Origin: Rufibacter sp. DG15C
GTDB taxonomy: Bacteria > Bacteroidota > Bacteroidia > Cytophagales > Hymenobacteraceae
Direction: 5' to 3'
Assembly (NCBI RefSeq): GCF_001577755.1
Contig: NZ_CP010776.1
Span: 3,906,001 to 3,970,000 of the forward strand
DNA length: 64,000 nucleotides
The translations under genes and the position numbers were made by a program. Of this stretch, positions 5 through 61,989 are shown one piece after another. Below the pieces are notes generated by a model. It had not been told where the DNA came from. It searched no databases and was given only the letters and a program-made list of their open reading frames with translations. Positions within the stretch are counted from its first letter, which is position 1. Every line of letters begins with the position of its first letter.

Positions 5-41
5 GTTTTTAGCTTGTTTTCGTAAAAACAGGCCAAAAACG
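5..41. repeat. Dispersed intergenic palindrome, copy 1
   Basis: First of about 24 copies of a near-palindrome whose idealised form is left arm GTTTTTGGCCTGTTTTC, a 2-4 nt loop (often TG or TGG), and right arm GAAAACAGGCCAAAAAC. It would fold as a stem of about 17 bp. This copy has a diverged left arm (AGCTTGTTTTC) and lies 26 nt before the phospho-sugar mutase start. No transposase is linked to any copy. The family function is unknown. Confidence 0.85.
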
Positions 42-67
42 CCTGCCCTATCCTTTACACTTTTACT

Positions 68-1816
68 ATGGAGAATAATTTGTCATTAGACGCGGCCGTA
101 CAGGCCAAACTTGATACGTGGCTGCAAGGTGGCTATGACCAGGAAACCAAAGCACACCTGCAGCAATTAATGGCTAGCCAGGACACAGACACCCTCACCG
201 ATTGCTTTTACAAGGACCTTGAATTTGGGACGGGCGGTCTGCGCGGCATCATGGGCATAGGCAGCAACCGCATGAACCGCTACACTGTGGGCATGGCTAC
301 CCAGGGCTTAAGCAACTACTTGTTAAAATCATTTCCAGACCAGGAAGTCTCTGTGGCCATTGCGCATGACAGTCGCAACAACTCAGATGTGTTTGCCAAC
401 GTGGTGGCTGATGTCTTCTCGGGCAACGGTATCAAGGTGTACTTCTTCAAAGAGTTGCGCCCTACGCCAGAGCTGTCCTTCGCCATCCGGCACCTAGGTT
501 GCCAAAGCGGGGTGGTTTTAACCGCCTCACACAACCCGAAAGAGTACAACGGCTACAAGGCCTACTGGAACGACGGCGGCCAGGTAACGGCCCCTCATGA
601 CAAAAACATCATAGCAGAGGTAAACAAGATCCAGGATTTGAGCCAGGTGAAATTTACCCGCGATGCTTCTAAGATTGAGTACATTCTGGAGGAAGTGGAT
701 GAAGCCTATCTGGACAAAGTCGCCCGCCTATCTGTGGATCCAGCCGTGATTGAGCGCCAGAAGGACTTGAAAATCGTCTACACGCCTATTCATGGCACGG
801 GCATTACTTTGGTTCCGCGTGCCTTGGAGCGCTTCGGTTTCACCAACGTGCACGTAGTAGAGGAGCAGGCCACGCCCGACGGCAACTTCCCAACGGTGGT
901 ATATCCTAACCCCGAGGAGAAAGAGGCCATGACCCTGGCCATGAACAAAGCCCGCGAACTGGACGCTGACTTGGTGTTGGCCACCGACCCTGACGCTGAC
1001 CGCGTGGGTATTGCCGTGAAAAACCACAAAGGCGAATTCGTTTTAATCAACGGAAACCAGACCGCAGCCTTGTTGACCTACTATGTCTTGAGCGCTTGGA
1101 AGAAAGCAGGTAAACTGACGGGCAACGAGTATATTGTGAGCACCATTGTGACCACAGACCTCATCAACCGCATCGCCGAAGGCTTTGGCGTAGACTGTTA
1201 TGAGACCTTGACCGGCTTTAAGTACATTGCCACCATCATGCGCGAGAAAGAGGGCCAGGCCCAATACATATGCGGCGGCGAGGAAAGCTACGGATTCTTG
1301 GTGGGTGATTTTGTACGCGACAAGGATGCTGTGTCTTCCTGCGCCATGATCGCGGAGATGGCGGCATCGGCTAAAGACCAAGGCAAGACTTTATTTGAGC
1401 TCATGATCCAGATGTACCAGGAGTTTGGCTTCTACAAAGAAGATCTTATCTCTATCACCAAAAAGGGCCACCGAGGAGCCTTGGAGATACAAGAGATGAT
1501 GCAGGAACTGCGGGAGAACCCACCTAAGACCATTGCTGGATCAAAAGTGGTGGAGATAAGTGACTATAAAACTGGGTTCAGACGCAATTTATTGACAAGG
1601 GAAGAACATGCCACTGGCCTGGAAAGCTCAAATGTGCTACAATACCTCACCGAAGACGGGACCAAAGTATCTGCCCGCCCTTCAGGCACTGAACCTAAGA
1701 TCAAGTTCTACTTTAGTGTCAAAGAGCCCTTGGCCTCTGCCAATGATTTTGACAAGGTGAGCCAGCAACTGGAGCAGAAGATAGACGCGGTGATTACTGA
1801 CCTAAAATTGAGATAA
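68..1816 (+). CDS. pgcA: Phospho-sugar mutase (phosphoglucomutase/phosphomannomutase)
   Basis: A 582-residue alpha-D-phosphohexomutase, expected to interconvert hexose 1- and 6-phosphates in the cytoplasm and so link glycolysis to sugar-nucleotide synthesis. The phosphoserine loop is visible as TASHNPKEYNGYK, the metal-binding loop as DPDADRVG, the sugar-binding loop as GGEESYGF and the C-terminal phosphate-binding loop as RPSGTEPKIKFY. Length and motifs fit the long form typified by Bacillus PgcA (about 580 residues). The ATG at 68 lies just after repeat copy 1, and no earlier in-frame start fits. The gene stands alone and is followed by a terminator at 1838. Glucose versus mannose specificity cannot be read from sequence, so the symbol is by family resemblance. 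Confidence 0.93.
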   Translation: MENNLSLDAAVQAKLDTWLQGGYDQETKAHLQQLMASQDTDTLTDCFYKDLEFGTGGLRGIMGIGSNRMNRYTVGMATQGLSNYLLKSFPDQEVSVAIAHDSRNNSDVFANVVADVFSGNGIKVYFFKELRPTPELSFAIRHLGCQSGVVLTASHNPKEYNGYKAYWNDGGQVTAPHDKNIIAEVNKIQDLSQVKFTRDASKIEYILEEVDEAYLDKVARLSVDPAVIERQKDLKIVYTPIHGTGITLVPRALERFGFTNVHVVEEQATPDGNFPTVVYPNPEEKEAMTLAMNKARELDADLVLATDPDADRVGIAVKNHKGEFVLINGNQTAALLTYYVLSAWKKAGKLTGNEYIVSTIVTTDLINRIAEGFGVDCYETLTGFKYIATIMREKEGQAQYICGGEESYGFLVGDFVRDKDAVSSCAMIAEMAASAKDQGKTLFELMIQMYQEFGFYKEDLISITKKGHRGALEIQEMMQELRENPPKTIAGSKVVEISDYKTGFRRNLLTREEHATGLESSNVLQYLTEDGTKVSARPSGTEPKIKFYFSVKEPLASANDFDKVSQQLEQKIDAVITDLKLR

Positions 1817-1837
1817 GCTACCCTAAGTAGTATCATC

Positions 1838-1875
1838 TAAAATTCCCTCTGAGGTTCTACTTCAGAGGGAATTTT
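1838..1875 (+). terminator. Rho-independent terminator after phospho-sugar mutase
   Basis: The hairpin has arms AAAATTCCCTCTGA and TTCAGAGGGAATTTTT around an 8-nt loop and ends in a T tract. It starts 22 nt after the stop codon. The next dispersed palindrome begins 2 nt after the T tract. Confidence 0.9.
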
Positions 1876-1876
1876 T

Positions 1877-1913
1877 GTTTTTAGCCTATTTTCTGGAAAA
1901 CAGACCAAAAACG
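1877..1913. repeat. Dispersed intergenic palindrome, copy 2
   Basis: Near-palindrome with left arm AGCCTATTTT, loop CTGG in the majority orientation and right arm AAAACAGACC. It directly follows the terminator at 1838-1875. The next 380 nt are very AT-rich and without a gene. Confidence 0.85.
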
Positions 1914-2177
1914 CTTTGCACTAAATAAGCCATTAACCTACTAATAGATTATATATAACTCACAAGGCACTATAAATTTTTATACAATTTTACCTGATTC
2001 CATTAATTGAACAAAATACATTTTTTGATACTATTAAATTAACATCATATCAATTTTTATATAATTATTTAAATCCTATGTCTACTTTCTAATACTTAAC
2101 ACTTGATTTATCCTATAGCCCTAAACCATCAGTATTTATGTTTAAATATATAGGTTTTACCTATATATCAAGGGTTT

Positions 2178-2217
2178 CTCTATTCAACGAGTAAATGAAT
2201 TCATTCATCGAATAGAG
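2178..2217. promoter_or_regulatory. Interrupted palindrome upstream of a T9SS surface-protein gene
   Basis: Outer arms CTCTATTC and GAATAGAG enclose an inner perfect palindrome AATGAATTCATT. The element lies 13 nt before the candidate promoter at 2231, in an otherwise AT-rich region of about 380 nt (1914-2294). It could be an operator. No regulator can be named. Confidence 0.4.
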
Positions 2218-2230
2218 TTTTCTATCCGCT

Positions 2231-2238
2231 TAAATTTG
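2231..2238 (+). promoter_or_regulatory. Candidate Bacteroidota -7 promoter element
   Basis: TAAATTTG matches the Bacteroidota -7 consensus TAnnTTTG and would start transcription about 50 nt before the ATG at 2295. The -33 element is not clear. Confidence 0.5.
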
Positions 2239-2294
2239 TGCTTCTTGATGCCATCAGAATTGAACAAGGCAATTCTTGAAAAAGTTAAATAAGC

Positions 2295-5200
2295 ATGGCA
2301 AGAATTTTTACCAACCTTAGTTTATTATTATTTTTTACTATTTCTTTCGCTTTTTCTGCTTGGGCGCAGACAGGGCCAACCATCTCTGCGGTTGCGCCAC
2401 TTTTAGGACAACCCAATACGGATGTAGTTCTAACCGGTACTAACTTTACTGGTGCTACCTCTGTCATGTTTTCTGGGATTTCAACCAGATTCACCGTTAA
2501 CTCAGGTACGCAAATCACAGTGAAGGTACCTAGTGCCGCCTTTACAGGTCCAATAAGAGTGACTACGCCTTCCGGAACTGCCTTGAGCGCCCCTTTCACG
2601 GTGCAGCGTACCACAAATTCCTACACGTTTACCGCTAACAATACCTTTACATATAGCCAACAGGCTTATAATGGTAACCAGATCTACTCTACGCCTACTT
2701 TCACAGACATTGACAGAGATGGCCTCATAGATTTAATCATTGGTACCTATGACGGAAACATTGAGTTACACGAGCAAAATGCGGTTAACTCAGGTACTTT
2801 TGCCATTGTAAACAAATTATTCATCCCTTCTACAGGCGTAAGAAATACCTCTCCCACCATCACAGACCTTGACGGCGATGGGTTGTTTGATATCATTGTA
2901 GGGAATGGAGACGGATTTTTAAAACACTATAAACAGAATGCCTCAAACAGCCTAGCTTTTACTCTACAAGCTGGAGACTTTTTAAATACAAGTTTTGGCA
3001 AATACGCTGCCCCAACCGTCTCTGACTTGGACGGGGATGGTTTGTTGGATTTCCTGATTGGGATGCAAGACGGTAGCTTGCAGCACTTTGAGCAGGATGC
3101 CGCCAATGGCTTGACTTTTACCAGAAGGACGGCTGCCACCGGTACCTTTAGCAACATTGACATTAACCGTACGCACGGCAATGCCCAGCCCAAAGTCTTA
3201 GATCTTGATGGGGACGGCCTGCTGGACTTGGTGATTGGCGGGTATAATGGATTCACTTATTACTTTGAGCAAACTGCCGCCAATGCCTTGACTTTTGACG
3301 GAGGCGCAACGCTGATTGGAGACATAGGTGACTTGGTAACGCCCGCTTTCACAGACATCAACGGAGATGGGCTTTTAGACTTGGCCTTAGGCGAATGGAA
3401 TAGCAACATGACCTTCTATTCACAGCAGGCATCTCCGAAAGCTGATGTAGGCGTGACCCTTTCCACCTCTGGCGGTCCCTATACCGTTGGGAAGACGCTC
3501 ACGTTCACCGTAATGGTGACCAACTCTGGACCTAATGCTGCCTCAGGTATTACGGTTAAAGATTTATTAGACCCTGCCAAGTTTCAAAACATCACCTCAA
3601 CTGATCCTACCTATGATGCTGCAAACCGAACCTGGAATGTTGGCTCATTGGTAGCCAATGCCTCTAAGACGTTAACCATCACAGCCCAACCATTGGCCAC
3701 AGGCACTATTTCCATCTTGGCCAAACAGGCCCATGCCGAAGTAGATTTGAATACTACCAATGACAGCCAAACAGCTTCTATCACAGTTGTTCCTTCTGCG
3801 GACATTGAGGTGAAAAACGTTGCCTCAAAGGCAGTGTATTACAGCGGCGAAGTGGTGGAGTTCACCATCTCTGCTAAAAACTTGGGACCAAACGTGGCCA
3901 ACAACGTGGTGGTGCAAAGCAAGCTACCTACCAATCTGTACATTTCGGGTACCGTGCCGTCTGGCTATGACTCCTTGTCTGGAAACTGGACAGTAGGAAC
4001 GTTGGCGTTGAATGAGACCAAAACGCTAATATTAAAAGCGAGACAAGCTGCTTCTAACCTGGGTTCTTTTACCTCTACCGCTACCCTCCTTGACAGAGGA
4101 ACCAATGAAGCCGACTTGAACACCAACAACAACACATCTTCTACCACCATCACCATAAGCCCAGCTGCAGACATTGCCATCACTAATGCAGTGTCTACAA
4201 CTACTCCTACCCAGGGTGCCACTTTCACTTATACCATTAAGGCTACCAATAACGGCCCGAACAACGCCTCTAATGTTGTAATATCGGGTACTGTTCCGGC
4301 TGGTCTTACTTTCTCTGGAGCTACGCCAACTTCTGGTAGTGCCACCATTGGGGCTGGTACCATTTCATGGAATGCAGGCCTCATCTTGAAAAATACAACG
4401 CAGACCTTGGTGCTGACGGCAATTTCCAATACGGTGGGCGCCATCACTTATTCTATGTCTCAGACACATACAGAGTATGACAGCAATACTGGTAACAACA
4501 GCGCCTCACAAACCATCAACGTTGCCCCTACCGCAGACATTAAGGTTGAAAACCTAGTTACTTCAACTCCGGTGGTAGCAGGAAAATACAGCAATGATGA
4601 GGTGGTTACCTACCAGGTAAACGTGACCAACAATGGACCTAGCTCCGCCACCAATGTGAAGGTGAAAGACTTGCTGCCTTCAACGTTGAAAGATATAACC
4701 TTTACTGCTCCTAGTGGGTCTACCTACTCTGCTACTTCAGGTGAGTGGTTGATCACTTCACTAACAAGCGGATCTACAACCACCCTATTGCTGAACGCCA
4801 AAGTAAAGGAAAGCGCCGTTATCAATACCTCGGCTTCATTGGTGTCTTTAGACCAGTTTGACAATGTGACCAGCAACAACAGTGCCTCCAACACTATCCA
4901 GGCTGGCACCGGCACTATCACCGCTGATATTGCGGTAACTGCATCGGTTGGGGCAGGCACCTACTATACCCAAAGCCCCATTACCTTTACGGTAAGAGCC
5001 ACCAACAACGGGCCAGACGCAGGCACCAACCTAAGCTTTAACGCACCGCTGCCAGCGGGCTTCACGTTTGTGAGTGCTTCTGGCAACTATAGCAATGGCA
5101 TCTGGACTGTTGCCTCTCTCGCCTCTGGAGACTTCACAGAGTTAACCTTGGTAGGCAAACCAAATGTGAATACAAGCACCAGTTCCACGGCAGATATCAA

Positions 5201-6992: not shown

Positions 6993-7029
6993 GGAGACTA
7001 AAATTTAGATTAACCTTATTCACAGTTTC

Positions 7030-7064
7030 AAATCCCTACTTGCTTATTGAGCAGGTAGGGATTT
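7030..7064 (+). terminator. Rho-independent terminator
   Basis: Arms AAATCCCTACTTGC and GCAGGTAGGGATTT flank a 7-nt loop and run into T-rich sequence, 37 nt after the stop at 6992. Confidence 0.85.
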
Positions 7065-7066
7065 TC

Positions 7067-7102
7067 ATTTTCGGGCTATTTTCTGGAAATCAGGCCAAAA
7101 AT
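7067..7102. repeat. Dispersed intergenic palindrome, copy 3
   Basis: Left arm TTTTCGGGCTATTTT, loop CTGG and right arm AAATCAGGCCAAAAA. It begins 2-3 nt after the preceding terminator and lies about 135 nt before the next start codon. Confidence 0.8.
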
Positions 7103-8216: not shown

Positions 8217-8270
8217 TGTCCATTCGTTTTTGGCCTGATTTCTAGGAAACAGGCCAAAAACGAATGGACA
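8217..8270. repeat. Dispersed intergenic palindrome, copy 4, with 8-bp private flanking arms
   Basis: The family core occupies 8225-8262. Outside it the unique sequence TGTCCATT on the left is perfectly complementary to AATGGACA on the right, lengthening the stem by 8 bp. Confidence 0.9.
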
Positions 8271-12457: not shown

Positions 12458-12458
12458 A

Positions 12459-12494
12459 TTTTTGGCTTGTTTTCTAATAAATAGGCCAAAAACG
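12459..12494. repeat. Dispersed intergenic palindrome, copy 5
   Basis: Left arm TTTTTGGCTTGTTTTC, a diverged loop TAATAA and right arm ATAGGCCAAAAACG. It starts 2 nt after the terminator. The remaining 320 nt up to the next gene are AT-rich, with no gene and no clear promoter. Confidence 0.8.
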
Positions 12495-16044: not shown

Positions 16045-16086
16045 TCCTTTTTTGGCCTATTTCCTGGAAAATAGGCCAAAAAAGGA
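16045..16086. repeat. Dispersed intergenic palindrome, copy 6
   Basis: TCC, then left arm TTTTTTGGCCTATTTCC, loop TGG, and right arm AAAATAGGCCAAAAAA, then GGA. It is one of the most symmetrical copies, with a TA in both arms. No separate terminator is seen between the two T9SS genes. Confidence 0.9.
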
Positions 16087-23508: not shown

Positions 23509-23560
23509 TAGTATCTGTTTTTGGACGGTTTTCTGGAAAGCAGGCCAAAAACAGATACTA
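23509..23560. repeat. Dispersed intergenic palindrome, copy 7, with 8-bp private arms
   Basis: The core carries left arm GTTTTTGGACGGTTTTC, loop TGG and right arm AAAGCAGGCCAAAAAC. Private flanks TAGTATCT and AGATACTA are perfectly complementary and extend the stem. Confidence 0.88.
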
Positions 23561-23705
23561 GGTTCTAAACAAATGCTGTAGTAATAGAAACGCATCAAGT
23601 AGAAAAGCTATTTTGCATTTCTAAACTCAACCAAACTTTGCTGCGCAAGAATCCATATCAATTCAACCTACTTTTTTTGGAGCATTACGAGTTATTATCT
23701 TTCCA

Positions 23706-23740
23706 ATTTTGGGCTAGTTTCTAGGAAAGAGGCATAAAAC
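23706..23740. repeat. Dispersed intergenic palindrome, copy 8 (degenerate)
   Basis: Weakly conserved copy with left ATTTTGGGCTAGTTTC and right GGAAAGAGGCATAAAAC. It is the second copy in the same 360-nt gap (23448-23807). The rest of that gap shows only the copy-7 region, a terminator and a promoter-like motif. Confidence 0.6.
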
Positions 23741-25279: not shown

Positions 25280-25317
25280 CGTTTTAGACCTGTTTCCCAA
25301 GAACCAGGCTAAAAACG
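25280..25317. repeat. Dispersed intergenic palindrome, copy 9
   Basis: Left CGTTTTAGACCTGTTTC, loop CCAA, right GAACCAGGCTAAAAACG. It lies in a convergent gap between the MBL gene and the minus-strand small protein. Confidence 0.75.
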
Positions 25318-25793: not shown

Positions 25794-25831
25794 CGTTTTT
25801 AACCTGATTTCCAAAAAAGAGGCGAAAAACG
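25794..25831. repeat. Dispersed intergenic palindrome, copy 10
   Basis: Left CGTTTTTAACCTGATTTCC, right AGAGGCGAAAAACG. It lies between divergently transcribed genes (the small protein and fbp), so it terminates neither transcript. The remainder of the 335-nt gap holds no convincing gene. Confidence 0.75.
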
Positions 25832-27044: not shown

Positions 27045-27090
27045 AAGCCGTTTTTGGCCTGATTTTGAGAAATCAGGCTAAAAACGGCTT
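27045..27090. repeat. Dispersed intergenic palindrome, copy 11 (possible bidirectional terminator)
   Basis: Core with extra arms AAGC and GCTT, followed by a T-rich run (TCTATTTTTTT). It sits in a 90-nt convergent gap between fbp and the LamG-like lipoprotein and is the only hairpin there, so termination is plausible. Confidence 0.85.
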
Positions 27091-28017: not shown

Positions 28018-28066
28018 ACTGTGCGAAAATGGGCTATTTCCTAGAAAACAGGCCAAAAACGACAGT
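28018..28066. repeat. Dispersed intergenic palindrome, copy 12
   Basis: Core about 28027-28062 (AAATGGGCTATTTCC and TAGAAAACAGGCCAAAAACG), with outer ACTGT and ACAGT pairs. It lies between divergent genes (LamG lipoprotein and S9 peptidase). Confidence 0.8.
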
Positions 28067-32758: not shown

Positions 32759-32797
32759 ATTTTCAGCCTATTTTCTCGAAAACAGGTCAAAAAACGG
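32759..32797. repeat. Dispersed intergenic palindrome, copy 13
   Basis: Left ATTTTCAGCCTATTTTC, loop TC, right GAAAACAGGTCAAAAAACGG. It follows the terminator of the minus-strand EamA gene by 7 nt in the direction of that transcript. Confidence 0.78.
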
Positions 32798-33846: not shown

Positions 33847-33884
33847 CGTTTTTGAGCTGTTTTCTGGAAAACTGCCCGAAAACA
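33847..33884. repeat. Dispersed intergenic palindrome, copy 14
   Basis: Left CGTTTTTGAGCTGTTTTC, loop TGG, right AAAACTGCCCGAAAAC. It abuts the minus-strand terminator at 33884-33924. Confidence 0.8.
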
Positions 33885-36810: not shown

Positions 36811-36844
36811 TATTCAATGAAATTTATATTAAACTCACACTCTA

Positions 36845-36883
36845 CTTTTGACCTATTTCCACCAAAACAGCCTAAAAACAAAG
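36845..36883. repeat. Dispersed intergenic palindrome, copy 15
   Basis: Left CTTTTGACCTATTTCC, right AAAACAGCCTAAAAACAAAG. It is imperfect and lies in the 145-nt gap between two minus-strand genes, directly after the MsrB-like gene. Confidence 0.7.
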
Positions 36884-37864: not shown

Positions 37865-37901
37865 GTTTTTGGCCTATTTCTATGAAAACAGGTCAAAAAC
37901 G
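37865..37901. repeat. Dispersed intergenic palindrome, copy 16
   Basis: Left GTTTTTGGCCTATTTC, loop TAT, right GAAAACAGGTCAAAAAC. It lies in the gap between two minus-strand genes. Confidence 0.85.
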
Positions 37902-43144: not shown

Positions 43145-43196
43145 ATAAAGCCGTTTTTGGCCTGGATTCTCAAAAACAGGCCAAAAACGGCTTTAT
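43145..43196. repeat. Dispersed intergenic palindrome, copy 17, with 7-bp private arms
   Basis: Left arm CGTTTTTGGCCTGGATTC and right AAAACAGGCCAAAAACG, with outer ATAAAGC and GCTTTAT exactly complementary. It lies 21 nt beyond the S41 peptidase stop (minus strand) and is probably also its terminator. Confidence 0.88.
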
Positions 43197-45306: not shown

Positions 45307-45346
45307 CCGTTTTTGGCCTATTTTCTGGAAAATACGCTAAAAACGG
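45307..45346. repeat. Dispersed intergenic palindrome, copy 18
   Basis: Left CCGTTTTTGGCCTATTTTC, loop TGG, right AAAATACGCTAAAAACGG. It lies between divergent genes (S41 and the small lipoprotein), in a 393-nt gap that otherwise holds only AT-rich promoter sequence. Confidence 0.85.
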
Positions 45347-46163: not shown

Positions 46164-46219
46164 AATAGCCTCCGTTTTTGGCCTATTTCCTGGAAAGTAA
46201 GCCAAAAACGAAGACTATT
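46164..46219. repeat. Dispersed intergenic palindrome, copy 19
   Basis: Core 46173-46210 with left CGTTTTTGGCCTATTTCC and right GAAAGTAAGCCAAAAACG, plus imperfect outer arms AATAG and CTATT. It is convergent between the lipoprotein and PfpI genes. Confidence 0.85.
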
Positions 46220-52566: not shown

Positions 52567-52604
52567 CGTTTTTGAGCTGTTTTCTGTAAAACAGGCCAAA
52601 AACG
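52567..52604. repeat. Dispersed intergenic palindrome, copy 20
   Basis: Left CGTTTTTGAGCTGTTTTC, loop TG, right TAAAACAGGCCAAAAACG. It directly abuts the dnaB terminator on its downstream (lower-coordinate) side. Confidence 0.88.
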
Positions 52605-52647: not shown

Positions 52648-52660
52648 AAATATCATGTTC

Positions 52661-54238: not shown

Positions 54239-54243
54239 ACTAG

Positions 54244-54336: not shown

Positions 54337-54390
54337 AAGATTGTCGTTTTTGGCCTGTTTCTGAGAAATCAGGTCAAAAACGACAATCTT
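54337..54390. repeat. Dispersed intergenic palindrome, copy 21, with 8-bp private arms
   Basis: Core CGTTTTTGGCCTGTTTC and GAAATCAGGTCAAAAACG with private arms AAGATTGT and ACAATCTT. It lies between divergent dnaB and mpl, so it is not a terminator for either. Confidence 0.9.
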
Positions 54391-54525: not shown

Positions 54526-54546
54526 CTCTCTTTGAATTTGGACGGC

Positions 54547-55929
54547 ATGAGTACAACAGCATACAAGCACATTCACATGATAGCCATTGGCGGTAGCATT
54601 ATGCACAACCTGGCGCTGGCATTGCACCGGAAGGGCCTGAAGGTCACCGGTTCTGATGATGAGATTTTTGAACCTGCCAAAGGCCGCTTGGCCGCCGACG
54701 GACTCCTGCCCGAGGCCGAGGGCTGGTTCCCAGAAAAGCTGCATGACAAACCAGATGCTGTGATTGTGGGCATGCACGCCCGTCCAGATAACCCCGAGCT
54801 GCTGTACGCCCAGGAGCATAACATTCCCATCTTCTCGTTCCCGGAGTTTATCTATGAGCAGTCCAGGAACAAACAACGCATTGTCATAGCGGGCAGCCAC
54901 GGCAAAACGTCCATCACGTCCATCATTTTGCACGTGCTCAAGTACCACAACCGCTTGTTTGACTACGCGGTAGGCGCCCAGCTGGAAGGCTTTGACCTGA
55001 TGGTGAAACTCACCGAAGAAGCACCCATCATTATCATTGAAGGCGATGAGTACCTCTCCTCTCCTTTTCAACGCGTACCCAAAATTCATAAATACCACCA
55101 CCACATTGGCGTGATTTCTGGCATCAGCTGGGACCACATCAACGTGTTCCCCACCGAGGAGAACTACCGCGAGCAGTTCAAGATATTCGTGGACATGACG
55201 CCCAAGGCTGGTACGCTCATCTACAACCAGGATGACGAGCAGGTGCAGGAAGTGTGTGTACCCAACAATTCTGATGTGAATTATATTGGCTACACCATTC
55301 ATGAGCACAAAATCAAGAAGAGCGGCAAAACCATCCTGAAGACCAAGAAGGACGACGTAGAAATTCAGCTGTTCGGGGAGCACAACCTACGCAACATCTC
55401 GGCGGCCAAGGAAGTCTGCAAGCAGATAGGCATCAAAGGACAAGCCTTCTATGAGGCATTGGCCACGTTCAAAGGCGCAGCCAGAAGACTAGAGAAGATT
55501 GGGGAGAACGAGCACACGCTGGTGTATAAGGACTTCGCGCACGCACCTTCTAAACTGAAAGCCACTTCTGAGGCCCTAAAGAAGCAATACCCAGAACGCC
55601 AATTGATTGCCTGCCTGGAACTACACACCTTCAGTAGTTTGAACAAGGATTTTCTACCGCAGTACAACGGCACTTTCCTGTCGCCGGACGTGAAGATTGT
55701 GTACTTCAACCCGAAGACGCTGGAGCACAAGCGCATGCCGGCTTTGGACCCCGCAGACTTGAAGAAAGCGTTTGGCGACGAGGGAATTGAAGTCTACACT
55801 GACAGCCAGGAACTGAAGGACTTCTTACTGAGCAACAACTGGAAGGACAAAAACCTGTTGATGATGACGTCAGGCAACTTCGGGAACCTGGACCTGCAGC
55901 AACTGGCAGACACCATCACAACTTCCTAA
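54547..55929 (+). CDS. mpl: Mpl-type Mur ligase (UDP-MurNAc:tripeptide ligase)
   Basis: About 460 residues from the ATG at 54547. Upstream in-frame codons lack homology. The N-terminal Rossmann part (HMIAIGGSIMHNLALAL, GSDDEIFEPAKG) precedes the ATP site IAGSHGKTSITS (about 116-122). The central domain carries ISWDHINVFPTEENYREQF and the C-terminal part DFAHAPSKLKATSEAL. It joins UDP-MurNAc to recycled tripeptide in peptidoglycan recycling. It is cytoplasmic. Confidence 0.93.
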   Translation: MSTTAYKHIHMIAIGGSIMHNLALALHRKGLKVTGSDDEIFEPAKGRLAADGLLPEAEGWFPEKLHDKPDAVIVGMHARPDNPELLYAQEHNIPIFSFPEFIYEQSRNKQRIVIAGSHGKTSITSIILHVLKYHNRLFDYAVGAQLEGFDLMVKLTEEAPIIIIEGDEYLSSPFQRVPKIHKYHHHIGVISGISWDHINVFPTEENYREQFKIFVDMTPKAGTLIYNQDDEQVQEVCVPNNSDVNYIGYTIHEHKIKKSGKTILKTKKDDVEIQLFGEHNLRNISAAKEVCKQIGIKGQAFYEALATFKGAARRLEKIGENEHTLVYKDFAHAPSKLKATSEALKKQYPERQLIACLELHTFSSLNKDFLPQYNGTFLSPDVKIVYFNPKTLEHKRMPALDPADLKKAFGDEGIEVYTDSQELKDFLLSNNWKDKNLLMMTSGNFGNLDLQQLADTITTS

Positions 55930-56052
55930 GTTAGGACCATAAACATTTCTCAGGCTCACTACTACGTGGGCCAGAGAATATTCAAAAATATCTATCCAAG
56001 AAGACGCAAATTCCAGGGAATCTGTGTAACATCAGCGTTCAAACCAGTGCCT

Positions 56053-56868
56053 ATGAAATTACACCTACGCAAGCCCATTGTCTTCTTTGACCTTGAAACC
56101 ACCGGCGTTGACATCTGCAAGGACCGCATCGTGGAGATAAGCATGTTAAAGGTTTTGCCGTCTGGCGAGGAGATTCTCCAAACCAAGCGGGTGAACCCTA
56201 CCATCCCTATTCCTATTGAGTCTAGCATGATCCACAAGATCTACGACGATGACGTGGCTCATTGCCAAACCTTCGCGCAATTGGCCCGGGGCTTGGACGA
56301 CTTCTTGAAGGGCTGTGATTTGGGTGGCTTCAACCTGATTAAATTTGACATACCCTTGCTGGCCGAGGAGTTCTTGCGCGTAGACATGGACTTTGACATT
56401 GAGAACCGCTCTATTGTGGATGTTTGCCGCATTTTCCACCAGATGGAGCAGCGCACCCTCTCTGCCGCTTACAAGTTCTACTGTGACAAACCACTGGAGA
56501 ATGCCCACTCTGCAGAGGCAGACACCATTGCAACTTATGAGATCCTAAAGTCACAACTGGAGAAATACGAAGGCGTTCCCCTTCCCGGGGCCGAGGACCA
56601 GGCCAAATTTCCAGTGCAGAATGACATGCAGCAGCTGCACCAATTCACGTTCCAAAAAACCGCAGATTTGTCCGGTCGCATTGTGTTTAACAACGCAGGT
56701 GTGGAGGTCTTCAACTTCGGTAAACATAAGAACGTCTCTGTAGCCGATGTGCTTAAAAAAGAGCCTAGCTACTATGACTGGATGATGAAAGGCGATTTTC
56801 CGCTTTATACCAAGAAAGTACTTACCCGTATTAAACTGCGCGGTGCCTTGCAGCAAACCACTTTTTAG
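56053..56868 (+). CDS. DnaQ-like 3'-5' exonuclease (exonuclease X/epsilon-type)
   Basis: About 271 residues from the ATG at 56053. The DEDDh exonuclease domain (about 8-175) has VFFDLETTGVD (Asp13, Glu15), NLIKFDIPLLAEEFLR and an HSAEADTIATYEIL end. A separate C-terminal segment (about 200-265) reads IVFNNAGVEVFNFGKHKNVS, then YYDWMMKGDFPLYTKKVL, a domain found in ExoX-like proteins. It may proofread or process DNA ends. It lies 123 nt after mpl. Confidence 0.9.
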   Translation: MKLHLRKPIVFFDLETTGVDICKDRIVEISMLKVLPSGEEILQTKRVNPTIPIPIESSMIHKIYDDDVAHCQTFAQLARGLDDFLKGCDLGGFNLIKFDIPLLAEEFLRVDMDFDIENRSIVDVCRIFHQMEQRTLSAAYKFYCDKPLENAHSAEADTIATYEILKSQLEKYEGVPLPGAEDQAKFPVQNDMQQLHQFTFQKTADLSGRIVFNNAGVEVFNFGKHKNVSVADVLKKEPSYYDWMMKGDFPLYTKKVLTRIKLRGALQQTTF

Positions 56869-56890
56869 ATTCAATACATTAGATTCAATT

Positions 56891-56928
56891 TGTTTTTGGC
56901 CTGTTTTCCAGAAAAAAGGACAAAAATG
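56891..56928. repeat. Dispersed intergenic palindrome, copy 22
   Basis: Left TGTTTTTGGCCTGTTTTCC, right AGAAAAAAGGACAAAAATG. The loop reads CCAG, the minority orientation. It abuts the minus-strand hairpin at 56929. Confidence 0.8.
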
Positions 56929-56967
56929 GAGAGGCAGCTTCCTACCAGAAGCGGCCTCTTCGTTTTT
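56929..56967 (-). terminator. Probable terminator of the minus-strand STAS-like gene
   Basis: An imperfect stem pairs AGAGGCAGCTT with AAGCGGCCTCT. It lies about 100 nt past the stop at 57067 on the minus strand. Weak T tract. Confidence 0.5.
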
Positions 56968-57066
56968 ATATTCATGAGTTGGATGGAATCTACTAATTCA
57001 CCATAATTTTTACCTTGATATTCAAAAGGACTTAGTGTTTTTCACCTAGATTCATAGAAGCGTTTA

Positions 57067-57492
57067 TCATGCTTCTGAGCCCAACAACCAGTAATGGGCT
57101 GCGGCTTCGTCTAAGAAGATATTGGTTTTTAAGTGCATGTTCAGGGATGCGTCTGCCTGCACCATCTCCCCAATGCGGTAAATGTCCATTAGGTTATAAC
57201 TGGCTTGGTTTAAAATATAGGAGATGTAGAGGGCATGGTCTTTGGGCATAGTAGCATACACCTTCTGAAACAGGAAATTCTGGTCAGAGATGTCCAAGTA
57301 CTGGACTTTACGGCTGTCAGAAAGCAGGTATTGGATTTGCCTTTCCATGACAAACTGGACTATGAGCAAGGCGGCTTCCCTAAACTGCGCACTTCTTGGA
57401 TGTTTAAGCCATGTAACTTTCATAAACCGTTTGGCTGGGTCCTCTTCTGCCAGAATAGTCTCATCTTTGTAAATTTGAACAAGCTTGGTCAT
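57067..57492 (-). CDS. STAS/SpoIIAA-like domain protein (third relative)
   Basis: About 141 residues from the ATG at 57492. An earlier in-frame start at 57573 would run through a hairpin stem and is rejected. It has KRFMKVTWLKHPRSAQFREA, QIQYLLSDSRKVQYLDISDQNFLF and AHYWLLG, the same general layout as the pair at 30740-31617. It is cytoplasmic. Function unknown. The family call is by layout, not by strong identity. Confidence 0.58.
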   Translation of the reverse strand: MTKLVQIYKDETILAEEDPAKRFMKVTWLKHPRSAQFREAALLIVQFVMERQIQYLLSDSRKVQYLDISDQNFLFQKVYATMPKDHALYISYILNQASYNLMDIYRIGEMVQADASLNMHLKTNIFLDEAAAHYWLLGSEA

Positions 57493-57563
57493 ACTAAGTG
57501 CGCATTTGTCAATCCATCTTTTTTGGCAGCCAATTTTATGTCTGGGAACAATCAGTATATACG

Positions 57564-57616
57564 TATAAAGCAAGAGAAGCCGCCCGTTTTACACGGGCGG
57601 CTTCTCTTGCTTTATA
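57564..57616 (-). terminator. Very stable hairpin downstream of M48 protease/microprotein
   Basis: A perfect 23-bp stem (TATAAAGCAAGAGAAGC and more, with its complement) and a 7-nt loop. It lies 33 nt past the microprotein stop at 57649 and is probably the terminator of the M48 unit, though the T tract is poor. Confidence 0.7.
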
Positions 57617-57648
57617 ACTTGTCAAGACTTCTTTTAAAGAAGAGCCTT

Positions 57649-57726
57649 TTACTTGGCTTTATCAGATTTTAGCAACAGGGCCATGAGCACTGCTCCAAAA
57701 ACAAACCATTTGCTAGGGGCTTTCAT
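57649..57726 (-). CDS. 25-residue membrane microprotein
   Basis: A short frame, ATG at 57726 to TAA at 57649, encoding MKAPSKWFVFGAVLMALLL followed by a basic end (KSDKAK). It has one hydrophobic segment flanked by Lys, like single-pass small membrane proteins. Its ATG lies 3 nt after the stop codon of the M48 metalloprotease gene on the same strand, so translation could be coupled. Too short for usual gene finders. It could also be chance. No homolog can be named. Confidence 0.4.
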   Translation of the reverse strand: MKAPSKWFVFGAVLMALLLKSDKAK

Positions 57727-57729
57727 GGC

Positions 57730-58530
57730 TTATCGGCCTTTGTAATATTTCTTGGCTTCTGGCAAGTGCTTCTGAATGTTGCTGATACGGGTCTCGCTGC
57801 TAGGGTGAGTGCTTAAGAACTCAGGAGTGCCGCCGCCGCCGTTGGCCGCCATACGCTGCCAGAAAGAAAGAGCCGCTTCTGGGTTGTAACCAGCCATGGC
57901 CATGAAGATCAAGCCTAATTGGTCGGCCTCAGATTCTTGGTCACGTCCGTATTTCAACATCCCTACGCCGGTACCAATACCGTACACCACGTTGGCTACC
58001 TCTTGGGCAGCGCCAGACTTGGCTCCTACCACGGCACCTAATGCGGCACCACCGTACTGCTGGGCCATCTGCTGGCTAATACGCTCATTAGAGTGCTTGG
58101 CAATAGCGTGGGCAATCTCGTGGCCCATTACTACAGCCAGGCCTGTCTCATCCTGTGTGATAGGCAGAATACCAGTATAGACCGCAGTTTTACCTCCCGC
58201 CATGGCAAAGGCGTTTTGCTGCTTGTCATCCTGAATCAGGTTGAACTCCCACTGGTAGCCTTCTAGTTGGGCAGAAAACCCGTTAGCCGACATGTACTGC
58301 TCCACGGCGCGCTGCACCCGCTGGCCCACGCGTTTCACCATGGCCGTTTGCGAGGCGTTGGTAGACAGTTTGCTTTGTTTTATGGTCTCATCATATGCCT
58401 GGAAAGACATAGCAATTACTTCTTGGTCGCTCACAAGGGACAATTGTCTACGCCCGGTAATTGGAACAGTAGAACAACCAACGGTAAGCAACACAGTCAA
58501 GGAAAGTATTGCGGTTTTTAAGGTATTCAT
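57730..58530 (-). CDS. M48 family zinc metalloprotease, lipoprotein (BepA/LoiP-like)
   Basis: About 266 residues from the ATG at 58530. An in-frame ATG at 58581 adds a non-conserved 17-residue lead. Lipoprotein signal ILSLTVLLTVGC. The active site is VVMGHEIAHAIAKH (His137, Glu138, His141). The third zinc ligand Glu is probably in DQESEADQLGLIFMA, and the conserved end is FLSTHPSSETRI. It is periplasmic, acting in protein quality control at the outer membrane. Confidence 0.93.
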   Translation of the reverse strand: MNTLKTAILSLTVLLTVGCSTVPITGRRQLSLVSDQEVIAMSFQAYDETIKQSKLSTNASQTAMVKRVGQRVQRAVEQYMSANGFSAQLEGYQWEFNLIQDDKQQNAFAMAGGKTAVYTGILPITQDETGLAVVMGHEIAHAIAKHSNERISQQMAQQYGGAALGAVVGAKSGAAQEVANVVYGIGTGVGMLKYGRDQESEADQLGLIFMAMAGYNPEAALSFWQRMAANGGGGTPEFLSTHPSSETRISNIQKHLPEAKKYYKGR

Positions 58531-58744
58531 AGTATGTATAGGGTTAAGTGATACAAAAGCTGAGTTCCCAGCGACATTCACAGCCGTTACGTAGGAGCGT
58601 ACCCATATACGTAGGTACGGTCACAAAGTGTTGTTGCCACAAGATTCAGCCGCAAATCTATTTTATCCTATATACAATTCCATGCCAATTTTTGAGAATC
58701 AGGCAGATTGCACTTCTAAGATTCCCTCTCACAGGTATTTCCCT

Positions 58745-58752
58745 TATCTTTG
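58745..58752 (+). promoter_or_regulatory. Candidate -7 element of the FAH gene
   Basis: TATCTTTG, an exact TAnnTTTG match, 14 nt before the ATG at 58767, implying a leader of about 10 nt. Confidence 0.5.
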
Positions 58753-58766
58753 GAAATAAAAAAGAT

Positions 58767-59378
58767 ATGAAAATACTAGCCATAGGACGCAATTACGCAG
58801 AACACATCGCTGAACTCCAGAACGAAGTGCCAGATGAGCCGGTCATCTTTTTTAAACCAGACACGGCAATTCTGCGCCACAATGAGCCGTTCTATTACCC
58901 AGACTATAGCACAGACATCCATTATGAAGTAGAGCTGGTGCTGCGTGTGGGCAAGGAAGGCAAGAACATCCAGGCTAAGTTCGCTGACAAGTACATTGAT
59001 GGGCTGGGAATTGGGATTGATTTTACCGCCCGTGACCTGCAGTCCAAAGCCAAAGCCAAGGGATTGCCATGGACGCTGGCCAAAGGATTCAACGGTTCTG
59101 CCCCTGTTTCTGACATGCTGCCTATTGAGGATTTCCCGGCTTGGGACAACATCAACTTTGGCTTGAAGGTGAACGGCGAGCTAAAACAGCAAGGCAACTC
59201 TGGGATGATGATCCATAACTTTGGGGCTATCCTGGCGTACATGTCGCGGTTCATCACGCTTAAAAAAGGTGATCTTATTTTTACCGGTACGCCGGCAGGG
59301 GTTGGCCCCATTCAAATTGGAGACCGGTTAGAGGCGTTTGTAGAAGATAAAACCATATTGAATTTTGAAGTTAAATAG
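58767..59378 (+). CDS. Fumarylacetoacetate hydrolase family protein
   Basis: A 203-residue compact FAH-fold enzyme from the ATG at 58767. It opens MKILAIGRNYAEHIAELQNE, then PVIFFKPDTAILRHNEPF, IHYEVELVLRVGKEGKNI (the E-x-E metal ligands), GIGIDFTARDLQSKAKAKG and FTGTPAGVGPI. The family includes acylpyruvase/oxaloacetate decarboxylase and related C-C bond hydrolases. It is cytoplasmic. The next gene overlaps its end by 14 nt. Confidence 0.92.
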   Translation: MKILAIGRNYAEHIAELQNEVPDEPVIFFKPDTAILRHNEPFYYPDYSTDIHYEVELVLRVGKEGKNIQAKFADKYIDGLGIGIDFTARDLQSKAKAKGLPWTLAKGFNGSAPVSDMLPIEDFPAWDNINFGLKVNGELKQQGNSGMMIHNFGAILAYMSRFITLKKGDLIFTGTPAGVGPIQIGDRLEAFVEDKTILNFEVK

Positions 59379-61293
59379 ATTTCGTCCCCTTATTATAGCT
59401 TACCTGGTAGGAAGTGGCACCATGGCCTTGGCACAGGCTCCGGCCGCCGCTCCAGCTACCACGGCGCCCACGCCGGCCGTTAGTCCGCTGTTTTTCCCTA
59501 TCAAACCAGGCACCCAGAACTACTTGTCCGGGAGCATGGGCGAGATACGTCCCAACCACTTTCATGGAGGTATAGACATTAAAACGGATGCCCGCATTGG
59601 CCTACCCGTGTACGCCGCCGAGGATGGCTACATATCCCGCATTAAGATATCCAGCTACGGGTATGGTTGGATGATGTACATCACGCATCCCAACGGTTTG
59701 GTCACTACCTATGCGCACTTAAACCATTTCATTCCTACCATTGCCCAGTACATGCTGCAGGTGCAATACCAAAAGCAGGCCTTTGACGTGGAAGTGAACT
59801 TACCAGAGACCCAGTTCCCGGTGAAACGAGGCGACATCATTGCCTATTCTGGAAACACGGGTGGTTCTGGTGGCCCACATTTGCACTTTGAGGTACGTGA
59901 TAAAAACGACAAACTGTTTAACCCTTTGCGCTACACTTTCGCTGAAATAAAAGACAACGTGGCGCCCACGGTTTATAACTTCGCGCTGGTGCCGCAGGGC
60001 ATCAAGTCACGGGTGCAGGGACAGTACCAGCGCAAAATGTTTACGCCCGTGAAGCAGGGTAATGTCTACACCTTGGCAGACACCATCTCGGCGGCAGGCT
60101 TACTTGGGCTGGAGATTCAAGCCATTGACCAGTATGACGGTGCCACCAATAGAAATGGCGTGCAAGCCATGGAGTTGACCGTGAACGGTCAGACAATTTA
60201 CAAGCACAACATTGACGGCGTTCCTTTTGATTTGCAGCGCCAGGTTTCTGCGCACATAAATTACCAGGAATTGAAACTGAGCAACAAAGCCTTCCAGCGG
60301 TTGTATGTGGCAGATGGCAACGTGCTGCCGCTCTATGAAACGGACAAAAGCAAAGGCAAATTCAACATTGAAGAAGGCAAGGTCTATGAAGTACTAATTG
60401 ATCTGTCAGATTCCTATAAAAACACGGCTCAGCTTCGGTTTATGATGCGCGGCGAAAGCAATGGCTATTACAGCAACGGCACGCCCAAAGTCACTGTACC
60501 TAAGATTAATTATGAAGTGCTGGAAAGCATTTTAAAGGTAACCGTGGCTGATACCGCTAAAACCGCCAGAAACCTGGATCTGTACATTGGCAATTACAAA
60601 TACGCGGTCATTCCCTCTTACACCACAGCAGCGGGATCTGTGTACCTCTATAACCTGATTGGTGGCCTCCCTGATTCAGTGGACCTTGGCGGTACCAAAG
60701 CGCGCTTTAAGTTTGAGCAAACAGTGCCACCCAATACAGAACTGTTTTACTCTAACCGCTACCTGGACATCACCTTCCAAAAGGAGTCTTTGTATGACAC
60801 ACTCTATTTGCAGACCAGCCAGGATGCCCAAGACGTAGTGAGCATCAACAATCCGTTGACCACGCTTTTCAAACCGGCCAAAGTAACCATCAGGCCCAAG
60901 AACATTCCAGCAGACAAGTCCAAGGCGGCGGTGTATGGTTTGGGCTGGGGAAAGTCTACGGGCTTTTTGGGCGGCACCTGGAACGGCGATGCCATCACCT
61001 TCTCAGCACGGGATTTTGGCAAGTTCAAGGTATTGAGCGATACCGTGGGCCCCACCGTGAAGCTGGTGCAGAAATCTCCTTCTCAAATCAGTTTTAAAGT
61101 TTGGGACAACCTGTCTGGCATGGCTTCCTGGCGCTGCGAGGTGAACGGCCAATGGGTCCTATTGAAATGGGAACACAAAAACTCCACCCTTACCTCAGAG
61201 CGTCTAGATAAAACTGTACCTTTGTCTGGAGACGTGGTGCTCACGGTCAAAGACGCCATGGGCAATGAGACCGTGTACCGCACTAAAATCTAA
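59365..61293 (+). CDS. M23 family metallopeptidase, secreted
   Basis: A 642-residue protein. The best start is a TTG at 59365, overlapping the FAH stop by 14 nt, because it opens a signal peptide (LIIAYLVGSGTMALAQA) and the next ATG would cut it short. The LytM/M23 domain has HFHGGIDIK (His67, Asp71), YGWMMYITHPNGLVTTYAHL and GGPHLHFEV. The C-terminal half (about 200-642) is beta-rich. It is expected to cleave peptidoglycan cross-links or stem peptides in the periplasm. Confidence 0.88.
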   Translation: MKLNRFRPLIIAYLVGSGTMALAQAPAAAPATTAPTPAVSPLFFPIKPGTQNYLSGSMGEIRPNHFHGGIDIKTDARIGLPVYAAEDGYISRIKISSYGYGWMMYITHPNGLVTTYAHLNHFIPTIAQYMLQVQYQKQAFDVEVNLPETQFPVKRGDIIAYSGNTGGSGGPHLHFEVRDKNDKLFNPLRYTFAEIKDNVAPTVYNFALVPQGIKSRVQGQYQRKMFTPVKQGNVYTLADTISAAGLLGLEIQAIDQYDGATNRNGVQAMELTVNGQTIYKHNIDGVPFDLQRQVSAHINYQELKLSNKAFQRLYVADGNVLPLYETDKSKGKFNIEEGKVYEVLIDLSDSYKNTAQLRFMMRGESNGYYSNGTPKVTVPKINYEVLESILKVTVADTAKTARNLDLYIGNYKYAVIPSYTTAAGSVYLYNLIGGLPDSVDLGGTKARFKFEQTVPPNTELFYSNRYLDITFQKESLYDTLYLQTSQDAQDVVSINNPLTTLFKPAKVTIRPKNIPADKSKAAVYGLGWGKSTGFLGGTWNGDAITFSARDFGKFKVLSDTVGPTVKLVQKSPSQISFKVWDNLSGMASWRCEVNGQWVLLKWEHKNSTLTSERLDKTVPLSGDVVLTVKDAMGNETVYRTKI

Positions 61294-61300
61294 GTTAAGT

Positions 61301-61458
61301 GTTAGGAGTTAAAAGTTATGAGTTAAAAGTTGGTCTAACAAAAACCGTTTTTAGCTTAGTTTCTGGAAAACAGGCCAAAAACGGCATTTGGAGTTCCACT
61401 TTCAAACACATGCTTTTACACAACAATAACTCTTAACTCATAACTTTTAACTCCTAAC
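61301..61458. repeat. Nested inverted repeat around palindrome copy 23
   Basis: Two 31-nt arms at 61301-61331 and 61428-61458 are complementary at 30 of 31 positions. Each is built from two GAGTTAAAAGTT-like units (or their complement). They enclose dispersed-palindrome copy 23. Confidence 0.85.
61345..61384. repeat. Dispersed intergenic palindrome, copy 23
   Basis: Left CCGTTTTTAGCTTAGTTTC, loop TGG, right AAAACAGGCCAAAAACGG. It is inside the larger inverted repeat of 61301-61458. Confidence 0.88.
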
Positions 61459-61466
61459 TAACACAC

Positions 61467-61913
61467 ATGCTAGAAGTCGGGAATGTAGCCCCAGATTTTG
61501 AGGTAAAGGACCAAGATGGAAACTTGGTGAAGCTGAGCCAATTCAGAGGCAAGAAAGTGGCCCTTTACTTCTACCCGAAGGATGACACCTCGGGCTGTAC
61601 GGCCCAGGCCTGTGACCTGCGCGACAACTACCAGATTCTGCTGGACAAAGGCTACGTGGTCTTGGGCGTGAGCATAGACAGCGAGAAATCTCACCAGAAG
61701 TTCATTCAGAAATACGACCTCCCCTTCCCGCTACTAGCAGACACGGAGAAAGAAGTAGTAGAGAAATACGGTGTGTGGCAGGAGAAGAGCATGTACGGCC
61801 GCAAATACATGGGCACCATGCGCTACACCTTCGTGATAGATGAGGACGGGATTATCCAGGACATCATCAAAAAGGTGGACACCAAAAACCACGCCGCCCA
61901 ATTGCTAAAATAA
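61467..61913 (+). CDS. bcp: Thiol peroxidase of the BCP/PrxQ family
   Basis: A 148-residue peroxiredoxin. APDFEVKDQDGNLVKLSQF, ALYFYPKDDTSGCTAQACDLRD (peroxidatic Cys44, resolving Cys49), and the end GRKYMGTMRYTFVIDEDGI are characteristic. It reduces peroxides with thioredoxin in the cytoplasm. The ATG lies 8 nt after the outer arm of the nested repeat, so that repeat lies in its leader or promoter. Confidence 0.95.
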   Translation: MLEVGNVAPDFEVKDQDGNLVKLSQFRGKKVALYFYPKDDTSGCTAQACDLRDNYQILLDKGYVVLGVSIDSEKSHQKFIQKYDLPFPLLADTEKEVVEKYGVWQEKSMYGRKYMGTMRYTFVIDEDGIIQDIIKKVDTKNHAAQLLK

Positions 61914-61916
61914 CCC

Positions 61917-61949
61917 AAAGGCCATCTGCCCCAGAAGCAGATGGCCTTT
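61917..61949 (+). terminator. Rho-independent terminator of bcp
   Basis: Stem AAAGGCCATCTG/CAGATGGCCTTT with a 9-nt loop, 3 nt after the stop. Confidence 0.9.
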
Positions 61950-61950
61950 C

Positions 61951-61989
61951 CCGTTTTTGGCCTCCTTTCCAGAAAACAGGCCTAAAACG
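61951..61989. repeat. Dispersed intergenic palindrome, copy 24
   Basis: Left CCGTTTTTGGCCTCCTTTCC, right AGAAAACAGGCCTAAAACG. The loop is CCAG, the minority orientation. It starts 2 nt after the bcp terminator. Confidence 0.83.

What the first reader, a model, noticed from the sequence alone, without database searches (positions are those of the whole stretch)
5..61989. A family of about 24 intergenic near-palindromes spread every 2-3 kb
The sequence shows a recurring 38-nt near-palindrome (left arm GTTTTTGGCCTGTTTTC, right arm GAAAACAGGCCAAAAAC) at about 24 intergenic sites and none inside a recognised gene. No transposase or group-specific protein is linked to it, so it may be a mobile palindromic element (REP/MITE-like), a structural boundary mark or a multi-role hairpin. 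To my knowledge it is not a described family, but I cannot search.
Basis: partly seen in the sequence, partly recalled or inferred. Interest (0 to 1): 0.85.

Follow-up and report, generated by a model that had tools for sequence, protein, structure and literature searches.

The report
Genus-wide palindromic DNA sites between genes
A bacterial genus carries hundreds to well over a thousand copies of a 36-letter mirror-symmetric DNA sign at gene boundaries, largely fixed in place between species yet spelled in different dialects, which looks like the address of an unknown DNA-binding protein rather than a jumping element.

Summary
In detail: 24 copies of a 36-bp dyad lie in the window, none in a called gene; the reversed window reaches 21 of 34, the copies at least 25. 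It is chromosome-wide: 299 copies in 800 kb of evenly spaced samples, 0 in the reversed control. The wider family has the skeleton GTTT-N5-CT-N2-TTT-N4-AAA-N2-AG-N5-AAAC: 190-1721 sites in 16 of 16 genus genomes (Rufibacter/Nibribacter), 0-2 in each of 134 sister-genus genomes. Copies stay put: of 46 orthologous gaps shared with N. ruber, 21 have a site in both, 1 in one, 24 in neither; wider comparisons are looser. The N positions form dialects. Three in-gene copies compared with sister genera show no 12-residue gain, and the own genome lacks the REP transposase domain, so mobility is not supported. Strand symmetry points to action as double-stranded DNA. About a quarter of tandem copies sit inside terminator-like hairpins; most do not. 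Best reading: recognition sites of an unidentified dyad-binding protein at transcription-unit boundaries. The protein was not found.

The parts
5..40 (.). 36-bp dyad site, 31/34 to consensus; a site at the matching place in N. ruber
1877..1912 (.). dyad site, 31/34; same gap in N. ruber
7067..7102 (.). dyad site, 28/34; same gap in N. ruber
8226..8261 (.). dyad site, 32/34, at apex of a longer hairpin; outer stem also in N. ruber with other letters
12458..12493 (.). dyad site, 29/34
16048..16083 (.). dyad site, 29/34
23517..23552 (.). dyad site, 31/34, with outer inverted repeat
23705..23740 (.). weak dyad site, 25/34
25281..25316 (.). dyad site, 27/34, convergent gap; same gap in N. ruber
25795..25830 (.). 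dyad site, 28/34, between divergent genes
27050..27085 (.). dyad site, 30/34, convergent gap, inside a terminator-like hairpin; same place in N. ruber
28025..28060 (.). dyad site, 27/34 (skeleton 14/18), divergent gap
32759..32794 (.). dyad site, 28/34; same gap in N. ruber
33848..33883 (.). dyad site, 29/34
36844..36879 (.). dyad site, 26/34
37865..37900 (.). dyad site, 30/34
43153..43188 (.). dyad site, 31/34, with outer inverted repeat
45309..45344 (.). dyad site, 30/34
46174..46209 (.). dyad site, 29/34; imperfect outer stem here, perfect 8-bp outer stem with other letters in N. ruber
52568..52603 (.). dyad site, 31/34; same gap in N. ruber
54346..54381 (.). dyad site, 30/34, between divergent genes; same gap has a site in N. 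ruber, R. radiotolerans and others, at other offsets outside N. ruber
56892..56927 (.). dyad site, 31/34, convergent gap; same gap in N. ruber
61347..61382 (.). dyad site, 30/34, +53 in its gap; N. ruber +53, G060 +55, R. immobilis +51, G022 +61
61953..61988 (.). dyad site, 31/34, +39 in its gap; +37 to +56 in N. ruber, R. radiotolerans, G060, G054, G032, G022, G048, R. tibetensis

Best explanation
The copies are recognition sites on double-stranded DNA for an unidentified dimeric or tetrameric DNA-binding protein of this genus, set at the boundaries of transcription units, where the protein would act as an architectural or insulating (supercoil- or neighbour-buffering) factor. Shown: copy number, dyad form, largely fixed positions, boundary placement, strand symmetry, dialects over a common skeleton, and no inserted length at three in-gene copies compared. 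Inferred: that a protein reads the skeleton bases, that the dialect follows changes in that protein, and that the function is architectural.
For: Always a full dyad: of 344 half-sites scoring at least 15/17, 1 has a partner arm of 8/17 or less. Contact-like pattern: T3-T5, T11, T14-T15 are nearly invariant while G/C positions vary, and arms mostly vary independently within a copy in the own genome. No strand preference relative to transcription: centre TG 47 vs CA 44, arm mismatches 371 vs 377 in 163 own tandem copies; wobble-type G.T vs A.C pairs 345 vs 300, p=0.08, in 384 tandem copies of 12 genomes. Density per kb of gap: convergent 2.68, tandem 2.05, divergent 0.99; 63 of 77 convergent gaps of at least 80 nt, 132 of 183 tandem gaps of at least 150 nt, 1 of 63 tandem gaps under 40 nt. 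Positions: 21 both, 0 and 1 one-sided, 24 neither with N. ruber; over 66 pairs of 12 genomes 223 both, 155 one-sided, 177 neither, odds ratio 7.4, pairs not independent. Clear dialects: own and N. ruber share one; G048, R. radiotolerans and R. immobilis each have another. Skeleton in 16 of 16 genus genomes and at background elsewhere. Site in murF-alr kept in place in 6 of 7 genus relatives examined.
Against: No protein was identified. In several genomes the N5 arms agree within a copy more than chance, in many different sequences (all five pairs formed: G057 13 of 48 vs 0.7 expected; G012 14 of 47 vs 3.0; own 87 of 277 vs 56.9), which a protein reading fixed bases does not explain and which suggests intrastrand pairing or palindrome-correcting mutation. 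19 of 321 own copies have a perfect core vs 6.3 expected. G057, G022, G027 and G032 show no single fixed filling of the N positions. Position is not absolute: 155 of 378 gaps with a site in at least one genome of a pair are one-sided. The boundary placement could equally be what remains after selection against sites in genes and promoters.
Confidence: 0.48

Rival explanations
1. The copies are RNA hairpins: genus-specific intrinsic terminators or 3'-end stabilisers.
For: Median 50 nt past the stop codon in tandem gaps. 46 of 190 tandem copies have an outer stem (5.8% with mismatched flanks) followed by more T on the sense strand (4.57 vs 2.89 in 10 nt, p=3e-5). In 34 orthologous pairs with N. 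ruber the stem is in both 7 times, in one 6 times, in neither 21 (p=0.002); in 6 of the 7 its letters differ (identity 0.40-0.67), in 1 they are the same. Gaps with a site hold a separate canonical terminator somewhat more often than gaps without (convergent 28 of 56 vs 4 of 13, tandem 26 of 132 vs 16 of 112).
Against: The core itself is followed by G, then A/G, then mostly A, not T. Copies without an outer stem (125 of 190) show no T asymmetry, 3.20 vs 3.14. No clear G.T over A.C preference (p=0.08). Canonical terminators in the same tandem gaps are separate from the site (19 before, 6 after, 1 overlapping). 31 of 323 copies lie between divergent genes and 20 inside genes.
Confidence: 0.17
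2. The copies are DNA uptake sequences: a receptor for transforming DNA prefers the dyad, and biased recombination spreads and homogenises it.
For: Dialects over a common core, copies inside genes, and nesting in terminators match Neisseriaceae DUS (passages of PMC3630211). N positions of orthologous copies hardly resemble each other more than unrelated copies do (0.695 +/- 0.020 vs 0.673, 35 pairs).
Against: Practically no lone half-sites (1 of 344). Strong avoidance of genes (20 of 323). Mostly one site per gap (187 sites; 165 tandem gaps of at least 60 nt occupied). Competence in this genus was not examined.
Confidence: 0.15
3. An old mobile palindrome (REP/MITE) that spread in the genus ancestor and is now immobile.
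For: Genus-restricted, mostly extragenic, palindromic.
Against: murF-alr, corC and asmA copies are not extra length against sister genera. Immobile copies should not move together into dialects. Constraint is very uneven along the element. No Y1_Tnp in the own genome; no GTAG or CGTC end tag by inspection of the consensus.
Confidence: 0.1

Closest known systems
DNA uptake sequence (DUS) dialects of Neisseriaceae
   Same: Hundreds to thousands of copies, species dialects around a shared core, copies inside genes, association with terminators (passages of PMC3630211)
   Different: DUS is a short one-sided motif; this is a 36-bp dyad practically never found as a half, and it avoids genes
REP / BIME / REPIN elements with RAYT
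   Same: Abundant extragenic palindromes (abstracts in the listing; passages of PMC3733652, which reports CGTC repeats in five phyla including Bacteroidetes)
   Different: No end tag, no Y1_Tnp in the own genome, positions largely fixed in the genus, three compared in-gene copies not insertions
Chromosome-wide protein sites such as matS, SlmA, Noc and parS sites (recalled, no call)
   Same: Dyad sites read by a dimeric protein, many per chromosome
   Different: As recalled these are tens of sites, shorter, and unevenly placed; here hundreds to over a thousand, even around the chromosome, at gene boundaries
Rho-independent terminators
   Same: About a quarter of tandem copies (46 of 190) lie inside a terminator-like hairpin
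   Different: The core lacks a T-tract and strand polarity

Membership tests
REP/REPIN with RAYT | RAYT (Y1_Tnp) gene in the genome | tested here: not met
   0 matches to PF01797 at E<=0.001 in the own genome; 15 of 17 genomes searched have some, including 4 of 5 sister-genus genomes, which lack the sites
REP/REPIN with RAYT | GTAG or CGTC tag at one end | tested here: not met
   Consensus and flanks show neither, by inspection; tag definition from passages of PMC3733652
MITE / insertion element | Copies are insertions relative to empty sites | tested here: not met
   Three in-gene copies compared show no 12-residue gain; intergenic gaps not decisive
MITE / insertion element | Position differs between related genomes | tested here: not met
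   21 both / 0 / 1 / 24 neither with N. ruber; 223 both, 155 one-sided, 177 neither over 12 genomes
Intrinsic terminator | GC stem followed by T-tract on the sense strand | tested here: not met
   Seen only for copies with an outer stem (46 of 190 tandem); the core alone has none
Intrinsic terminator | Compensatory change in the stem | tested here: inconclusive
   Own core: mostly none, pairs 5:32 and 6:31 excepted; outer stems of a subset: yes (6 of 7 shared stems); N5 in G057, G012, G027: yes
DNA uptake sequence | Species dialects over a common core | tested here: met
DNA uptake sequence | Single (one-sided) copies occur | tested here: not met
   1 of 344 half-sites with a poor partner
DNA uptake sequence | Drives uptake of DNA | not testable with these tools
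   needs a transformation assay
Sites of a sequence-specific DNA-binding protein | Dyad symmetry, conserved contact-like bases, strand-independent | tested here: met
Sites of a sequence-specific DNA-binding protein | A protein binds it | not testable with these tools
   no candidate found
Rfam RNA families | Match at gathering score | tested here: not met
   0 matches in the window

The most novel reading that the evidence does not exclude
A previously undescribed chromosome-organising or insulator system: typically one dyad per transcription-unit boundary, read by a genus-specific protein whose recognition dialect was rewritten genome-wide several times while the sites largely kept their places.
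Probability: 0.35. Interest if true: 0.9.

Novelty: new variant of a known kind. Interest (0 to 1): 0.72.

Why it matters
Insulators at transcription-unit boundaries are not an established kind in bacteria (recalled, no search for this). Here is a network of hundreds to over a thousand largely position-conserved dyads with 16 genomes held, at least four clear dialects and a genome with few sites (R. tibetensis, 190), so the reader protein should be findable by capture and by phylogenetic profiling. It is also a natural case of genome-wide coevolution of a motif and, presumably, its reader.

Tried and rejected
Restriction to part of the chromosome: the listing seemed to show a gap from 0.59 to 3.0 Mb. 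This was an artefact of the truncated list (a window copy with one mismatch was missing from it), and even sampling showed no gap. Even spacing: spacing CV 0.775 against 0.713 (sd 0.030) for random choice of gaps, so not more regular. Compensatory folding of the own core: mostly absent. Link of the centre dinucleotide to replication arm: TG/CA 55/39 vs 34/49, weak, left open. Bacteroidetes LexA-like operators (passages of PMC8565304: CTAA-N5-TTAG, GGA-N5-TCC): different motif. Viral contigs: 24 stretches with an exact skeleton match in the collection; loci L200-L223 were not read further. Identifying the reader protein: not achieved; no whole proteome could be enumerated. An earlier count said 12 shared gaps with N. 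ruber; itself shows 11, and supersedes it.
Full report
OBSERVATION. The 36-bp near-palindrome GTTTTTGGCCTGTTTTC-NN-GAAAACAGGCCAAAAAC is present 24 times in the window; the reversed window has nothing above 21 of 34 against at least 25 for the copies. No copy overlaps a called gene. The gene calls are from my own codon-model script, not from a published gene finder.

EXTENT. Forty 20-kb stretches spread around the 4,143,738-bp chromosome hold 299 copies at 25 of 34 or better and none in the reversed sequence; every one of the 40 stretches has between 2 and 12. That is 374 per Mb, or about 1,550 per chromosome by extrapolation. A stricter skeleton count over the whole genome gives 870. An exact scan of 84,980 named genomes with the own dialect found 6 stretches, all in four Rufibacter genomes; records very near the own genome may be left out of that scan.

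FAMILY. Relatives carry the same frame with other letters: G048 GTTTTCGGGCTCATTTC.., R. radiotolerans GTTTTaGGCCTGTTTT.., R. immobilis GTTTAGGGGCTGTTTTT... G057, G022, G027 and G032 show the frame without one fixed filling. The common skeleton GTTT-N5-CT-N2-TTT-N4-AAA-N2-AG-N5-AAAC, with at most one mismatch and no demand on the N positions, gives 190 to 1,721 sites in 16 of 16 genus genomes (reversed control 0 to 1). In 134 genomes of five other genera of the family it gives 0 to 2 (8 of 134 have any). Among 291 genomes of the order, including 4 of this genus, no genome outside the genus exceeds 2, which is also the largest reversed control. Names come from contig lengths: G017 is Nibribacter ruber, G012 R. 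radiotolerans, G006 R. tibetensis; G045 is R. immobilis.

PLACE. In 864 kb, of 323 copies 187 lie in tandem gaps, 76 convergent, 31 divergent, 20 in genes and 9 at stretch ends. Occupancy rises with gap size and is highest between convergent genes: 63 of 77 gaps of at least 80 nt, against 132 of 183 tandem gaps of at least 150 nt, 26 of 55 divergent gaps of at least 200 nt, and 1 of 63 tandem gaps under 40 nt. In tandem gaps the median is 50 nt past the stop and 130 nt before the next start.

FIXED POSITION. Between the own genome and N. ruber, of 46 orthologous gaps of at least 60 nt in a contiguous block, 21 have a site in both, 0 in own only, 1 in N. ruber only, 24 in neither. Across 66 pairs of 12 genomes: 223 both, 104 and 51 one-sided, 177 neither (odds ratio 7.4; pairs share genomes and are not independent). 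So gain, loss or decay happens, but position is largely kept. Offsets agree (median difference 13 nt, Spearman 0.63, 186 pairs). At one orthologous gap in ten sister-genus genomes (five genera, gaps 8 to 179 nt) I saw no such dyad; some of those gaps hold ordinary terminators.

NOT INSERTIONS. The copy inside murF-alr lies at the same codons in N. ruber, R. radiotolerans, G054, G060 and G057 (17-18 of 18 skeleton bases) and in R. immobilis (15); in G048 it is at background (12, the best sister-genus value). Against the own protein, the same stretch in five sister-genus proteins is 0, 0, 2 shorter, 2 shorter and 12 longer, so a 12-residue gain in this genus is not seen. In corC the genus has V-F-G-L-F-S-E-K-like residues with no gap at that place against Pontibacter and Adhaeribacter. 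In asmA the Nibribacter copy VFGLFPVKDVKN replaces VLGLFP-like residues position by position. Fourteen in-gene copies were read in their open frames; three of the 14 were compared with relatives.

DNA OR RNA. Arms vary mostly independently in the own genome; for example at position 7, 90 left-arm variants have 15 complementary right arms against 13.3 expected. Pairs 6:31 (14 vs 3.2) and 5:32 are exceptions. Oriented by transcription, the own site shows no polarity: centre TG 47, CA 44; arm mismatches 371 and 377. In N. ruber the centre is TG 13, CA 6, and in G048 TG 16, CA 18. G.T 345 vs A.C 300 (p=0.08) over 384 tandem copies of 12 genomes. The central two bases avoid being complementary in several genomes (own 0.21 vs 0.35; G048 0.06 vs 0.46; R. 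immobilis 0.05 vs 0.32) but not in R. radiotolerans (0.34 vs 0.36).

HAIRPIN SUBSET. 46 of 190 tandem copies have an outer stem around the core (5.8% with mismatched flanks), and these are followed by more T on the sense strand, 4.57 vs 2.89 in 10 nt (p=3e-5); 125 without a stem show 3.20 vs 3.14. In 34 orthologous pairs with N. ruber the stem is present in both 7 times, in one 6 times, in neither 21 times (p=0.002); in 6 of the 7 the letters differ (identity 0.40-0.67), in one they are the same. So some copies sit at the apex of terminators. Canonical terminators separate from the site are also found: tandem gaps with a site 26 of 132, without 16 of 112; convergent 28 of 56 and 4 of 13.

TURNOVER. 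In 35 orthologous pairs the N positions agree 0.695 +/- 0.020 against 0.673 between unrelated copies, while aligned flanks agree 0.598 against 0.498 (an earlier set of 11 pairs gave 0.646 vs 0.655). The place is kept while the letters drift within the dialect; at this divergence the flanks too are near saturation, so faster-than-neutral turnover is not claimed.

AGAINST MY READING. In G057, G012, G027 and more weakly elsewhere, the N5 arms match within a copy more than chance, in many different sequences. Perfect cores are in excess (19 of 321 vs 6.3) and go with extended flanks (odds ratio 7.3). This speaks for intrastrand pairing, or for palindrome-correcting mutation by strand switching (recalled mechanism), at part of the copies. 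No reader protein is known.

MECHANISM AND RIVALS. I rank an unknown dyad-binding protein marking transcription-unit boundaries first (0.48), then RNA hairpins (0.17), uptake sequences (0.15) and a fossil mobile palindrome (0.10). The remainder is for something else.

LITERATURE. Search listings only: Rufibacter with palindrom* (2 papers, not relevant), Hymenobacter with palindromic (9), Nibribacter (12, of which 10 listed), and others. Passages, not whole texts, were seen of PMC12306157, PMC3733652, PMC3630211 and PMC8565304. Nothing I saw describes this family; the library is open-access only.

Noticed in passing
L058:18440-18475, L039:18371-18406, L066:2725-2760: In-gene copies read in frame 0 give similar peptides (VFGLFSGKDTKN, VFGLFPVKDVKN, VFGLLSEKQAKN) in different proteins.
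   Followed up: partly
G006 (R. tibetensis), whole genome: Fewest sites of the 16 genus genomes (190), and the four seen in 60 kb are irregular: a possible loss or decay case for the reader protein.
   Followed up: no
own genome, arcs 3.48-0-1.5 Mb and 1.5-3.48 Mb: Centre dinucleotide TG/CA is 55/39 on one arc and 34/49 on the other; a weak and unexplained strand signal.
   Followed up: partly
G057, G012, G027 sites: N5 arms are fully complementary in several to many different sequences, far above chance (13, 14 and 5 copies vs 0.7, 3.0 and 0.5 expected).
   Followed up: partly
L051, L061 (own genome, GC 0.40 and 0.45): Low-GC stretches have few sites (2 and 4 per 20 kb against a mean of 7.45), though the correlation with GC over 40 stretches is not significant (p=0.21).
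   Followed up: no
dnaA at G000:464669 versus GC-skew sign changes near 1.5 and 3.5 Mb: dnaA does not lie near a sign change of GC skew in the 40 sampled stretches.
   Followed up: no
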